Below the pieces are notes generated by a model. That model was given only the letters and a program-made list of their open reading frames with translations. It did not search any database and was not told the origin of the DNA. Positions 38,796-44,291 of a stretch of DNA of 64,000 bases are shown one piece after another. Source of the DNA: Ulota crispa (taxonomy: Eukaryota; Streptophyta; Bryopsida; Orthotrichales; Orthotrichaceae); NCBI GenBank assembly GCA_963920765.1, contig OY987244.1:28562358-28626357 (forward strand), in the 5' to 3' direction. The first letter of the stretch is position 1; each line of letters begins with the position of its first letter. The translations under genes and the position numbers were made by a program.

Positions 38796-39144
38796 CTCCT
38801 AAATATCCAAGACACCAAATTTAGATGTTTAGGGCATCCTTAGTCCATACCCGCAATAAAGGCCGCTATAACAATCTTCATCTATTAACCCCTGAGCGCC
38901 CAGCAGACGGGATCCTGTCGCAGGGAATTAAAAACTAGGGTTCCTGGTCGTGGATGTACTTGTCCTGTTCTGTGGTTTGTACAGAGTTGTGACAGAGTGG
39001 GTCACTCATCAGAAGTGAGTGGGGTTACTTGGAGCTGAAGTCGTTGTAGGTCGCTGTATGCAATTGCAACAAGGGACCAACGTTCTGAGTTCAGGATTTC
39101 AACTGGGACAACCGGGGAGAGCCGGTTGCAAACCGTTGGCCCCA

Positions 39145-39153
39145 TTTTGGCGC
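39145..39153 (+). promoter_or_regulatory. E2F-like site in the captured segment
   Basis: TTTTGGCGC fits the E2F consensus TTTSSCGC. It lies about 500 bp upstream of the MCM-like exon; replication genes such as MCMs are known E2F targets, so promoter DNA may have been captured with the exon. Confidence 0.5.
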
Positions 39154-39652
39154 GAGATGGAAAATTTCGAGTCTCGGTTTTCTTGATTCTTGTCAGGCGA
39201 GGTTTCTGGAAATTTGAGAGTGTGAGGATTGGGAGTGTTGCGGCATGAGTGCGATTCTTGTCATCGCAAGCGGTTTAGGGTCTGTGCGTACATGGTACCA
39301 TGGTTGATGGAGATTTCATGGAGAATTGCTCTTAGTTTGCTGGGGACGAGCACGCTTAGTTTAGAGGGAGCGTGCACAGCCACATTCACCGAAACATGAT
39401 TGAGGTTTAGGGCTACTGTGCGGTTGCCCTCAGGGTTTTCATTGCAAGGAGTACTGGTGCCGTCCGGGTTTTCATTGCAGGGAGTTCGTGTTAGGGTTGC
39501 GATCAGCAATTCGCAAGAACGTTTGGCTGTGGCGGGCGTTGCCTAGAGGGATTTCAGTTGTCTTTTACATTGGATGTTGTGGCCGAATGTGCATTTTGTG
39601 AGTGTTTGCTCTGTGTGATACTCAAGGTTTTTTTTTGTCTGGGTTTATGCAG

Positions 39653-40093
39653 GGGCGCCCAACTCCATCTGCAAAACCGGATGACGACATGGGTGGGGAG
39701 TATGCTCACGTGTGGGGAAGAAACGTGAATATCCCAGATGTGTTGAGAGCAATTCGTCGGTTTCTCAACAATTACCAGACAAATGCAAGAGATCTTCATT
39801 CAAAGTACATCCAGCTTATAGAGGAAGTTGGTAAAAAATTCCTGTCTGAGCTCACCGTATTGCTTCAACAGGACGATTTAGCACAGAGACTGACAAATTT
39901 TGTTGTTGGCATCAATCAGGCTGTGGAGCTAGACGAGGATACTGTAAACATTGACATGTCCAATATTGCCAACCATGACCCTCATCTATGTGGCAAAATT
40001 GTCTGATATCCCCTCGATATTATCCCTTTCTTGGACAAGGAGTGTCAAGATGTTGCCACATACTTTGTACCGACATTTGAGAATCATATTGAG
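39653..40093 (+). pseudogene. Captured MCM (MCM4-like) N-terminal fragment, broken
   Basis: An exon-like stretch from an AG acceptor (39651-39652) to a GT donor (40094). The translation contains a VWGRNVN start block, an IRRFLNNY helix, KYIQLIEEV, a valine/aspartate-rich strand and then KIV. An in-frame TGA at 40004-40006 stands where CGA (Arg) would give the R-YPL motif that follows MCM N-terminal domains; after it the frame stays open to the GT donor, with PLDIIPFLDKEC. MCM proteins are subunits of the replicative helicase; the WG-N-V start and RYPL motif look most like MCM4. Only part of the N-domain is present; the zinc finger and AAA+ ATPase are absent. It lies inside a TTAA-flanked element, so it is a mobile gene fragment, not a working gene. 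Family assignment is from memory of motifs. Confidence 0.55.
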
Positions 40094-40212
40094 GTATGCA
40101 TTAACCTCTGACCCTGCTTCTAGATTCAAATATTTGAATGTTACATGCCCTCAAATGCAGAGCTCGAATCCAGCTCACCATGTGTGCATGTGATGGGGTA
40201 TTTTCTTTTCAG

Positions 40213-40344
40213 ATCTACAGAGATATGGTTCGGAGAGCAAATGAGGCTACCAACAGAGGCGAGTACGGAATCGCAGCGAGTGCCTTGGGGTGGAGAAACA
40301 TTGTCCTGTCCGAACAATTCTTCTGGTCAGTCGAAGCTCTCTAA
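40213..40344 (+). pseudogene. Second coding-like fragment, unidentified
   Basis: After a TTTTCTTTTCAG acceptor the frame reads IYRDMVRRANEATNRGEYG and continues to a stop at 40342-40344. It does not look like the continuation of an MCM N-domain, which suggests a second captured source or a divergent exon. A further open frame to 40528 in another phase contains KHYPQILSMIDKVSAG. Not identified. Confidence 0.4.
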
Positions 40345-40576
40345 ACTAGCAATAACAGAAAGGAGGATTACGATTTTGCACTACTTACGTATTCCTCGGT
40401 CACGCAAGCTAGTAGCCAAGCATTATCCACAAATCCTTTCCATGATTGACAAGGTTTCAGCTGGGGTTGGGCTGTACATGAAGGGACAGTATGGACGATC
40501 CGCTCAAGGTGTGTCAAAGCATTGTTGAAACTGCAGCCTGCGGAGCCGAAGAAGCAATGTCAGCTGACCGCGGTAG

Positions 40577-40590
40577 TTGGCGCGGGAAAA
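40577..40590. promoter_or_regulatory. Strong E2F-like site
   Basis: TTGGCGCGGGAAAA closely fits the extended E2F/DP consensus (TTTSGCGCSAAA-like, with GCGGGAAA). It lies downstream of the coding-like fragments in GC-rich DNA, so it may belong to a second captured promoter. Confidence 0.55.
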
Positions 40591-41538
40591 CTCCGCTGGC
40601 AAGCAGTACGAGGGGGGGCGACCGGGAGGGGGACGTGTCAGTGAGCCCCGTACACTGAAACCGGAAACCTGCTTCATACCAGCTGCACCCCAAGCTCATT
40701 CATGGCCGATGCAGATGGTCCCTCAGTTGTCAGAAAAAGTTGGAAATTTGAAGCCTATCAACTAACCTAGTCGAGAAGACCCTGCCAAAAACTCGTGCCC
40801 AGATTCCTCTTCCCTAAACTGCACTGATTTTTGAAAGCTCAAGACTCCACTAATTTTGCAACCCTCCAGAAAGGTCAACTAAAGTTTGACTATTATAATT
40901 TTCTTTTCAATACGGTGAATCCCTCTCCTTTTTTGACTAATTGAACCGCACCCTAAACAACTACCAATTTCTACAGTGAATCTCTCTGGATCTGAGCCTT
41001 CTATCTCCGGCCCCAACTTCAATGGCAGTACCTCCTCCGGGTCCCTCCTTCTGCAGTTATGGGCTGGGCGCTCGAGGGTTAATAGTAGATAGTTAAACAC
41101 GCAAAAAATATATGGTTTGAAGGGCATGAAAATTTTTCATTCTAAAAATGTAATAAAATTTTGGCTTGGATATTGCATGCTTTAGATATATTATATCAAA
41201 TGTTAGCTAACTTCAAAAAAATTAGAGGCCTCTCCAAATCAAGCCTAAATAAGGAAGTTTTACTAAAGTGAACGGCAAATGTAGCAACCCCTCTACTAAA
41301 ATTTCCTTGTTTAGGCTTGATTTGGAGAGGCCTCTAATTTTTTTTGGAAGTTAGCTATCATTTGATGTGATATATCTAAATCATGCAATGTCCAAACCAA
41401 AATTTTATTATGTTTTTAGAATGAAAAATTTTAATGCCCTTCAAACCATATAATTTTTGTGTGTTTAACTATGTGCTATTAATAGGTCAAGATTGTTAAA
41501 GCGGCCTTTATGGCAGGTATGGACTAAGGATGCTCTTA

Positions 41539-42834: not shown

Positions 42835-42989
42835 AGTTAGGAGTGAATTCCAGGGTTAGGGAATACTGTCGGTAAATGACTCGTAGGGATTGATTCTGAA
42901 TGGATGTTTTGAGGTCGATGGTTCCTAGCTGGACGAGTGTCTAAGCGTCCTTTGGATTGTGTGCAGTTGAAAAAATCTGCTAGCACAGG

Positions 42990-44291
42990 ATGATGTGGAT
43001 TTGGCCGACGTCGTGGACATGGAAGGGGAAGGAACCGGAGAACGCGGTTGTCACAGCAAGCTCGAGTGATGGTGAATCCACACAATCCCATGCTCTATGC
43101 TCTGGCCAATCCGGGGCTGAAGCTGCCACAACATCGGCGTCATGTCCCTCGCCATCACTGTATTTTTCTGAGCGAATCCAAAGCTTGAGTGAGCGGCGGA
43201 ACGACTTCGCTAGCGAGGTCGAGTTTGAGATCGAGTCCTCGAAATCTCACTGGACGGAACCGTCTGTTGCAAGATTGAACTGCGATTCCGATGAGGAGCA
43301 GGTGCCGAACAGCGTGGTGTTCGAGAAACTGAAGGAGCACCCCGAGTGGGGACCCTTTTTCCGGAGACAGCCGTACGTGTTGAAGATTGGTGAGAGGATT
43401 GCTGAGGGAGGGCAGGCTGAGATTTATGAAGCCTCTCGAACAAATGTGATCGATCATTATCATGGCACCAGGCCTAAGAAGACATCTGGATGGCATGGGG
43501 ACATGGATCTGGTGGTGAAAGTGTTCAAAGGAGGTTCTACTCTCCAGGAACTGCAACAGATGTGGCCTCCTGGACTCGCATCGGCCGCATTACCGCACCT
43601 GTATTTTCCTCAGTCCCATGGACTTTGTTGGGCCCTGGGTGTGCAATTGTTGGGTGATGGCAGATTCGCGTTTGTTTATGACAGGTATTGGGGTGATGTA
43701 CGCAAGCTCATCGATGAAAGAGTGCGGAAAAGTAATGGAACCCCGCCATTTTCAATGGTGGAGACCCGCTTAATCCTGCTTAATATTGCACGGGGTATGG
43801 CTAACCTCCACGGATTAGGCATTCTCCATAGAGACCTGAAAGCAGCCAACGTCTTGATAGGTCGTGAAGGTAAGCAGAATTCGATAATTGGTTGTCCAGT
43901 ATTCATAGCAGATTTCGAGTCCTCACTAAGGATCATAGGCACCAAATTTTGGAGATCCCCGGAGGTATTGCTGGCTTTGAGGAATGGCGGCGGCTCGAGA
44001 GCGGTGAAGTTCACACGAGAATCAGACGTGTACAGCTACGCCATGACCTGCTACGAAGTCATCACGGGTCGTTTACCTTTTGAAGGCCATCCAGTCTATG
44101 ATTACGATGTGGTCTTGCGTGGTGACAGACCGGCATTGCCGAATGAGACCCCTTGCCAGTTGAAGGCTCTGGTGATAAAGTGTTGGCACAAAGACCCTCT
44201 CCAACGACCCTCATTTCAAGAGATCGTTGAAGACTTAACGGCGATGGCTGACCAGTTGAATCTGGACATAGTCCCACCGGTTAATCCATGA
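42990..44291 (+). CDS. TKL-like Ser/Thr protein kinase, single exon
   Basis: A 433-residue predicted cytosolic or nuclear protein kinase with no signal peptide or membrane segment. Residues 1-110 are Ser/Glu-rich and probably disordered. The kinase domain runs from about 131 to 420: glycine loop IAEGGQAEIY (137-146), VVK lysine at 177, catalytic loop HRDLKAANVLI (280-290; Asp282, Asn287), DFE at 308-310 in place of DFG, SPE at 323-325 in place of APE, helix-F Asp346 and Arg406 near the end. The usual phosphotransfer residues (Lys, both Asp, Asn) are therefore present, with an altered, short activation segment. The intronless gene and the HYHGTRPKKTSGW insert between the glycine loop and the lysine recall a kinase group expanded in mosses; this is memory, not a search. 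Two adjacent ATGs (42990, 42993) leave the start ambiguous by one residue. Substrate and pathway are unknown. Minus-strand frames here are shadows. Confidence 0.88.
   Translation: MMWIWPTSWTWKGKEPENAVVTASSSDGESTQSHALCSGQSGAEAATTSASCPSPSLYFSERIQSLSERRNDFASEVEFEIESSKSHWTEPSVARLNCDSDEEQVPNSVVFEKLKEHPEWGPFFRRQPYVLKIGERIAEGGQAEIYEASRTNVIDHYHGTRPKKTSGWHGDMDLVVKVFKGGSTLQELQQMWPPGLASAALPHLYFPQSHGLCWALGVQLLGDGRFAFVYDRYWGDVRKLIDERVRKSNGTPPFSMVETRLILLNIARGMANLHGLGILHRDLKAANVLIGREGKQNSIIGCPVFIADFESSLRIIGTKFWRSPEVLLALRNGGGSRAVKFTRESDVYSYAMTCYEVITGRLPFEGHPVYDYDVVLRGDRPALPNETPCQLKALVIKCWHKDPLQRPSFQEIVEDLTAMADQLNLDIVPPVNP

What the first reader, a model, noticed from the sequence alone, without database searches (positions are those of the whole stretch)
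38885..41082. TTAA-flanked transposon carrying a captured MCM-like exon with E2F-like sites
Seen: TTAA at both edges, inverted GAGCGCCCAGC ends, and interior GC-rich genic DNA with an exon-like MCM N-domain stretch bounded by AG and GT, one in-frame stop, and sites TTTTGGCGC and TTGGCGCGGGAAAA. Known: MCM genes are E2F targets; gene-fragment capture is documented for Pack-MULEs, Helitrons and CACTA elements. I do not recall it for piggyBac-like elements in plants. Inference: the element acquired promoter plus exon together.
Basis: partly seen in the sequence, partly recalled or inferred. Interest (0 to 1): 0.75.

Follow-up and report, generated by a model that had tools for sequence, protein, structure and literature searches.

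The report
TTAA transposon carrying stolen gene pieces
A small piggyBac-type jumping gene in this plant genome has picked up pieces of at least three unrelated places in the genome, including part of the DNA-replication gene MCM4; gene theft by jumping genes is well known in plants, but I found no report of it for this class.

Summary
The element is real and its ends are exact. 38885-41082 is a 2.2-kb TTAA-flanked element with 16-bp inverted ends, inserted in an older PIF-type MITE. Of 16 distinct sibling MITEs, 13 have one intact TTAA at that site, 2 have one changed base, and for 1 the alignment is cut there; none shows an insert. Retained introns mean it was copied from DNA. Joined to it are 110 bp from a C1 locus and 230 bp from an ELF3-like gene on C3. 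The co-captured MCM promoter is not supported: MCM4's 5' region is absent, and both E2F-like sites lie in backbone shared with sibling elements. A sibling pair (C5, C9) carries RING-finger and BAHD-acyltransferase pieces at two unrelated sites, so a loaded element has moved. The family has about 5,000 ends. It is a Pack-TYPE (gene-fragment-carrying) transposon of piggyBac type: a known kind in a superfamily for which I found no earlier report. Template switching during gap repair fits best, but is inferred.

The parts
38829..41538 (.). Older outer element: PIF/Harbinger-type (Tourist-like) foldback MITE with TTA direct repeats (38829-38831, 41536-41538) and ends GGGCATCC/GGATGCTC; the inner element is inserted in its left arm
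   Evidence: Inverted repeats I1-I3; 81 matches in the genome search, many of them the two orientations of one foldback copy; TTA/TAA flanks seen at several siblings; type assigned from recalled features
38885..41082 (+). Pack-type TTAA transposon, including both TTAA copies
   Evidence: Empty site at sibling MITEs; TIRs
38885..38888 (.). Left TTAA (target-site copy)
38889..38904 (+). Left TIR CCCCTGAGCGCCCAGC
38885..39179 (+). Left backbone, about 70% identical to sibling elements e4 (C5) and e8 (C3)
39145..39153 (+). E2F-like site 1 (TTTTGGCGC), in left backbone; also in e4, one change in e3
39180..39551 (+). Unassigned interior; no other match found in the genome by DNA or by the 93-aa reverse-strand frame; contains a 2 x 33-bp tandem repeat
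39552..40142 (+). MCM4 gene fragment from C2:22862668-22863258 (sense)
   Evidence: MCM4 identity
39653..39826 (+). MCM4 exon A (58 codons)
39827..39919 (+). Retained MCM4 intron (93 bp here, 88 bp in the gene)
39920..40093 (+). MCM4 exon B (58 codons) with in-frame TGA at 40004-40006
40147..40256 (+). Fragment of a locus on C1 (C1:11913126-11913235), 89% identical, no other match found; gene not identified
40255..40484 (+). Fragment of an ELF3-like gene exon on C3 (C3:13425293-13425523, minus strand; sense in the element), 89% identical; 2-bp overlap with the C1 piece
   Evidence: ELF3 name rests on a recalled motif
40485..40547 (+). Unassigned 63 bp
40548..41082 (+). Right backbone, 76% identical to e4, 62% to MITE e8 over its outer part
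40577..40590 (+). E2F-like site 2 (TTGGCGCGGGAAAA), in right backbone; siblings e3 and e4 read CTGGCACGGRAGAAG
41063..41078 (-). Right TIR CCCTCGAGCGCCCAGC (read inward)
41079..41082 (.). Right TTAA

Best explanation
Shown: 38885-41082 is a non-autonomous TTAA (piggyBac-type) element, inserted with TTAA duplication in a PIF-type MITE. Between its ends it holds fragments of at least three loci on three large contigs (MCM4, an unidentified C1 locus, an ELF3-like gene); the MCM4 piece was copied as DNA, with introns. At least one other element of the family carries other gene fragments and exists at two unrelated sites. Inferred: an ancestral backbone element was broken, most likely at excision. 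The gap was repaired by copying from several unrelated chromosomal templates with template switching and end joining, leaving 4 bp of filler at one junction and a 2-bp overlap at another. The loaded element kept functional ends, was moved in trans by a piggyBac transposase, inserted in the outer MITE, and has since decayed. The gene fragments are probably passengers. The E2F-like sites belong to the element's own subterminal sequence, not to MCM4.
For: Empty sites: of 16 distinct sibling MITEs, in the best-scoring orientation 13 read TTAA, L044 and L053 have one changed base, and L056's alignment is cut there; none has an insert. In the other orientation of these foldback copies 15 of 16 read TTAA. 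Donor matches at 87-89% with sharp edges; no other match found for MCM4 (protein), C1 or the ELF3-like piece. MCM4 identity by PDB (10 of 10 hits MCM4) and MCM_OB in the next exons. Introns retained: 12.0%, 15.9% and (32 sites only) 9.4% diverged, against 7.4% and 8.0% for the exons. Sibling pair e3/e4 86% identical over 1500 bp with unrelated flanks, carrying RING (L067) and BAHD (L068) pieces. About 5,000 family ends against 1 control. 120 PF13843 matches, some being two pieces of one copy; two transposase loci align over 4003 bp, to within one base of ..GGGTTAA. No internal TIR remnants above shuffles.
Against: No transposase-bearing element with this exact TIR was identified, and none of the 30 transposase loci held (of 120 matches) shares backbone sequence with the elements tested. 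The 372-bp segment 39180-39551 and the 63-bp segment 40485-40547 have no known source. Repair-based capture is inferred from junctions only; the one overlap is 2 bp, which chance could give. The window element itself exists in one copy, so its own movement after capture is shown only by its TTAA insertion, not by a second copy. ELF3 is named from a recalled motif, without Pfam or PDB support. The genome searches score only the best candidates, so 'no other match' is limited to that.
Confidence: 0.72

Rival explanations
1. Tandem-insertion fusion, as proposed for Pack-CACTA and other Pack-TYPE elements: two neighbouring elements flank host DNA and are mobilised as one, repeated once per donor.
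For: Documented for Pack-TYPE elements (PMC8903248, section 9 read; review passages PMC13317346). Sibling elements do sit directly side by side in places (L004 2003-2251).
Against: No TIR remnant above shuffles inside the window element or e4 (best match 13/20 and 12/20). No TIR above shuffles within about 1.2-1.5 kb of five of the six loci tested; the sixth, L080, has an end of the other TTAA family. Three donors on three contigs are joined with at most 4 bp between them, so several fusions with complete loss of the inner TIRs would be needed.
Confidence: 0.2
2. One reading: the element took up an MCM promoter together with its exon, so that the E2F-like sites are MCM regulatory DNA.
For: Two strict E2F-like sites, more than the 0.24 expected; an MCM gene piece is present.
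Against: The captured piece starts in an intron; MCM4's 5' end is absent. Neither site region matches the first 1500 bp of the MCM4 locus (scores 26 and 26; shuffle maxima 33 and 36). Both sites are in backbone shared with elements in which no MCM4 match was found. Site 2 lies downstream of the MCM4 piece.
Confidence: 0.03
3. A different TTAA-generating superfamily (for example Sola3, recalled) rather than piggyBac made these ends.
For: The transposase partner with this exact TIR was not found; TTAA duplication is not exclusive to piggyBac (recalled).
Against: PiggyBac transposases are abundant (120 PF13843 matches) and two transposase copies end, to within one base, at TTAA CCCTTCATTGCC; ends are CCC-type and 16 bp. 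No Sola3 search was made.
Confidence: 0.12
4. RNA-mediated capture (a processed MCM4 copy) or an ordinary host pseudogene with chance ends.
For: The MCM4 piece reads as an almost continuous frame (134 aa).
Against: Parts of both flanking introns and an internal intron are present; empty sites show the whole 2.2 kb came in as one TTAA unit.
Confidence: 0.01

Closest known systems
Pack-TYPE transposons (Pack-MULE, Pack-CACTA, Pack-hAT, Pack-PIF, Pack-Mariner; Gisby and Catoni 2022, PMC8903248)
   Same: Non-autonomous TIR element with internal fragments of host genes, multi-gene chimeras, relatives with and without the insert.
   Different: TTAA target and piggyBac-like ends; that paper treats MULE, CACTA, hAT, PIF and Mariner in rice, maize and Arabidopsis, and its text holds no mention of piggyBac (count; passages and section 9 read). 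No TIR remnants found between fragments here.
piggyBac/TTAA MITEs (for example coral CMITEs, PMC2872659, passages read; Wuneng and Microuli as cited there, rice origin recalled)
   Same: TTAA duplication, short TIRs of the 12-19 bp piggyBac type, high copy number, no transposase.
   Different: The coral elements are about 100 bp; the paper suggests transduplication as a possible origin of their interior but found no source sequence.
Teratorn (piggyBac-herpesvirus fusion in fish; PMC6431247, passages read)
   Same: piggyBac-type element that has taken in foreign DNA.
   Different: A giant element with its own transposase and a viral genome, in animals; not small host-gene fragments.

Membership tests
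piggyBac superfamily | TTAA target site, duplicated on insertion | tested here: met
   Single TTAA at 13 of 16 sibling MITE sites (2 with one changed base, 1 cut alignment, no inserts), TTAA at both edges of the insert
piggyBac superfamily | Short TIRs (12-19 bp) | tested here: met
   16 bp, 14 of 16 matching
piggyBac superfamily | Terminal motif CC[C/T]T (definition as given in PMC2872659) | tested here: inconclusive
   Right end CCCT fits; left end reads CCCC; both forms occur among family ends
piggyBac superfamily | Moved by a PF13843 DDD transposase | tested here: inconclusive
   Such transposases are abundant with the typical D motifs (motifs recalled) and two end at TTAACCC, but none is tied to this exact TIR; L014's right end matches it at 16 of 20 bases, which background copies could also give
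Pack-TYPE transposons | Non-autonomous element with matching TIRs and target duplication | tested here: met
   no PF13843 match at this place's listing, which is capped to scored candidates
Pack-TYPE transposons | Internal DNA derived from host genes outside the element | tested here: met
   MCM4, ELF3-like gene, C1 locus
Pack-TYPE transposons | Loaded element has been mobilised | tested here: met
   e3/e4 pair at unrelated sites with RING and BAHD pieces; for the window element only through its TTAA insertion
Pack-TYPE transposons | Acquisition by tandem insertion and remobilisation (a proposed mechanism, not a defining trait) | tested here: inconclusive
   No internal TIR remnants above shuffles, which does not support it; remnants could have been lost

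The most novel reading that the evidence does not exclude
In this plant, piggyBac-type elements act as a running gene-shuffling system. Thousands of TTAA elements take up pieces of unlinked genes by template switching during gap repair, join them into chimeras with splice sites intact, and spread them. If the 1-in-10 rate of loaded copies in my small sample holds, the genome carries hundreds of such chimeras, and piggyBac joins the Pack-TYPE superfamilies with a capture route unlike tandem fusion.
Probability: 0.35. Interest if true: 0.68.

Novelty: new variant of a known kind. Interest (0 to 1): 0.5.

Why it matters
Gene-fragment capture is a main route by which plant transposons make new exon combinations, and the Pack-TYPE survey seen here covers five superfamilies without piggyBac. 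A piggyBac-type Pack element with three donors abutted and no TIR remnants bears on an open question: whether capture needs tandem elements or can happen by template switching. The outer-MITE empty site, the retained introns and the known donors make this copy a clean test case. piggyBac is also a transgenesis tool known for seamless excision, so evidence that related elements acquire host DNA has some practical interest.

Tried and rejected
Rejected: co-capture of an MCM promoter; RNA-mediated capture (introns); a chance or host-gene reading; a full-length second copy of the window element (none found). The 26-bp resemblance of 40532-40557 to the BAHD gene was not better than shuffles (score 32, maximum 34) and is not claimed. 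The source of 39180-39551 was sought by DNA, by the 93-aa reverse frame and against donor loci; nothing convincing was found (best score 40 against L068, shuffle maximum 39). A transposase partner was sought in the 30 loci held, by backbone similarity and by paired TIRs within 1.5 kb, without success. ELF3 was not supported by Pfam or PDB; the C1 locus was only scanned for open frames. Literature: 10 full-text searches; no listed title or abstract start, and no passage that I opened, reports gene capture by piggyBac elements in plants. Most listed papers were not opened and subscription papers are mostly not held, so this is not proof of absence. The E2F-in-Brassica-transposon literature was seen only as a listing. 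The moss paper PMC10619864 turned up in two listings; of its two 'piggybac' counts the one shown is the word 'piggybacking'. The organism was not identified; a bryophyte is a guess from genome size and contig number.

Sample limits: 10 of the 100 listed exact-TIR places (of 5,009 counted) were fetched, chosen by hand along C1-C3. Taking the nearest partner end (for L069, the alignment to L077), 7 of 10 are 248-250 bp, 2 of 10 are 772 and 783 bp, and 1 of 10 (L073, 1384 bp) carries extra DNA, part of which matches one place on C9 at 76%. That C9 locus was not shown to be a gene; its one peptide tested gave no significant Pfam hit.

Full report
Observation. The window lies at C3:28562358-28626357 of a 274.8-Mb genome in 157 contigs. 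The element at 38885-41082 has TTAA at both edges and 16-bp inverted ends, CCCCTGAGCGCCCAGC and CCCTCGAGCGCCCAGC. Its ends belong to a large family: TTAACCCCTGAGCGCCCAGC with up to 3 mismatches is found 2562 + 2447 times, against 1 + 0 for the reversed pattern.

Insertion shown by empty sites. The element sits inside an older foldback MITE, whose ends GGGCATCC/GGATGCTC and TTA repeats are of PIF/Harbinger (Tourist) type (type assigned from recalled features). I joined the window flanks and aligned them with 19 fetched sibling loci, which are 16 distinct places. In the best-scoring orientation 13 of 16 read a single TTAA at the insertion point, L044 and L053 have one changed base, and L056's alignment is cut there; none shows an insert. 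In the other orientation of these foldback copies 15 of 16 read TTAA. The 2.2 kb therefore came in as one unit with TTAA duplication.

What is inside. A whole-genome DNA search gave 13 matches. Besides the element itself and end-only relatives, three matches are to places unlike the element. (1) C2:22862668-22863258, 87.5% over 600 alignment columns, matches window 39552-40142. The spliced protein of that locus hits only MCM4 chains in the PDB (10 of 10, best E 8e-8), its next exons match MCM_OB (E 1e-15), and a protein search finds only this gene and the window element. (2) C1:11913126-11913235, 89% over 110 bp, matches 40147-40256; no other match was found and its gene is not identified. (3) C3:13425293-13425523, 89% over 231 bp, matches 40255-40484. 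It lies inside a long open exon of a gene whose N-terminal motif (..PRGPPRNKMALYEQL..) I recall as that of ELF3; neither Pfam nor PDB supports or contradicts this.

The MCM4 piece was copied as DNA. It contains the end of one intron, exon A, an 88-bp intron (93 bp in the element), exon B and the start of the next intron. The joined exons align without a gap across the junction to the best PDB match, chain 8ouw_4. Introns differ by 12.0%, 15.9% and (32 sites only) 9.4%, and exons by 7.4% and 8.0%. Differences by codon position are 3, 3, 7 in exon A, 4, 3, 7 in exon B and 7, 4, 14 in the ELF3-like piece. This fits a free-running copy beside a constrained gene. Exon B has a TGA at 40004-40006 where the gene has CGA.

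E2F-like sites. Two strict sites in the element exceed the 0.24 expected (P about 0.02), but they did not come with MCM4. Site 1 (39145-39153) is in left backbone: e4 on C5 reads CATTTTGGCGCAAG, e3 on C9 CATTTTGGCACAAG, and the short relatives e6 and e8 carry TTTTTGGCGTGAG and TTTTTCGCGTAAG. Site 2 (40577-40590) lies in right backbone, where e3 and e4 read CTGGCACGGRAGAAG. Of the 14 other elements examined, 3 have a strict site: e4 at the same place, L070 and L073 elsewhere. The MCM4 gene's own candidate site (GCGGGAAA, L002:20-27) lies outside the captured piece, and no similarity to the first 1500 bp of the MCM4 locus beyond shuffles was found. Whether any E2F protein binds these sites is untested.

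Siblings show the same behaviour. e4 (C5:13139137-13140636) and e3 (C9:14166121-14167567) are 86% identical throughout, have TTAA at both ends, and sit in unrelated flanks: left score 24 against a shuffle mean of 23.6; right, beyond the MITE next to e4, 22 against 21.9; right with that MITE included, 41 against a mean of 28.9 and a maximum of 45. Their interior matches C2:3698485-3698718 at 83%, a gene with a RING domain (PF14634, 28.6 bits against a cut-off of 27.9), and C7:18343087-18343363 at 72%, the 5' end of a BAHD acyltransferase gene (PF02458, E 2e-23). An element already loaded with two gene pieces therefore transposed. In a sample of 10 exact-TIR copies, 7 are 248-250 bp MITEs, 2 are 772 and 783 bp, and 1 (L073) is 1384 bp, with extra DNA absent from a 67-68% similar copy on C6 and partly matching one place on C9 at 76%. 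The rate of 1 in 10 is only a pointer.

Superfamily. TTAA duplication and short CCC-type ends fit piggyBac. The genome has abundant piggyBac transposases (120 PF13843 matches, 116 of 528 first-look candidates scored, some matches being two pieces of one copy) with typical D motifs in those translated (motifs recalled). Two copies, L009 and L018, align at 90% over 4003 bp and stop within one base of GGGTTAA, so transposase-bearing elements here do end at TTAA CCCTTC. No transposase element with the window's exact TIR was found among the 30 loci held, and the left ends could not be fetched. I file the element as piggyBac-type, with the transposase link inferred.

How it most likely formed. Three donors on three contigs are directly joined: the MCM4 and C1 pieces with 4 bp of filler, the C1 and ELF3-like pieces with a 2-bp overlap. 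No TIR remnant above shuffles lies between them, and none lies near five of the six loci tested. The published fusion model for Pack-TYPE elements (PMC8903248 section 9) would need several fusions and the loss of every inner TIR. Template switching during repair of an excision gap needs no such steps, so I prefer it, at perhaps 50-55% as to mechanism. Two stretches (39180-39551 and 40485-40547) have no known source. All four gene pieces whose gene could be named or typed (MCM4, ELF3-like, RING, BAHD) are in the sense direction relative to the element as drawn; four are too few to claim a bias.

Comparison with what is known. Pack-TYPE elements are described for MULE, CACTA, hAT, PIF and Mariner (PMC8903248, passages and section 9). 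That text and the 2026 review on gene capture in plants (PMC13317346, passages) have no mention of piggyBac (counts). A 2008 grapevine survey states that only five superfamilies, without piggyBac, had been described in plants (PMC2528002, passages), whereas a fern genome lists 1230 PiggyBac copies (PMC6890710, passage) and a review lists piggyBac MITEs in angiosperms (PMC10004981, passage). A coral study proposed transduplication for piggyBac MITEs without finding a source (PMC2872659, passages). In ten searches of a partial library I found no report of gene capture by piggyBac elements in plants; most listed papers were not opened.

Verdict. It is a known kind of thing in a superfamily for which I found no earlier report, with an unusually clean history. 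It is of moderate interest, and higher if a genome-wide census shows many loaded elements.

Noticed in passing
window 44806, 50972, 54536, 57084 and genome-wide: A second, much larger TTAA family: ends like TTAACCCCTAAAGGCCCAAT (up to 3 mismatches) occur 14826 + 14861 times against 63 for the control, a very heavy load of TTAA-type ends for a 275-Mb genome.
   Followed up: partly
L004 2003-2251: A 249-bp family MITE has inserted directly at the right TTAA of sibling element e4, so elements can sit back to back sharing one TTAA.
   Followed up: no
L009 and L018 (C3:13132787, C10:11527521): Two long piggyBac copies, 90% identical over at least 4003 bp up to the right TTAA; each has stops in the transposase frame.
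   Followed up: partly
window 38829-41538: The outer foldback MITE belongs to a high-copy family (1987 first-look candidates, 40 scored) that is nearly palindromic over about 0.5 kb.
   Followed up: partly
L067 1684: The RING-finger donor gene on C2 has an in-frame stop within the captured region; either an unseen intron or a decaying gene.
   Followed up: no
window 42984-44291: An open frame with a protein-kinase domain (PF07714, E 5.8e-25) begins about 1.4 kb downstream of the nested elements.
   Followed up: no
window 39418-39483: Two 33-bp tandem copies (82% alike) within the unassigned 5' interior, with GGGTTTTCATTGCA cores.
   Followed up: no
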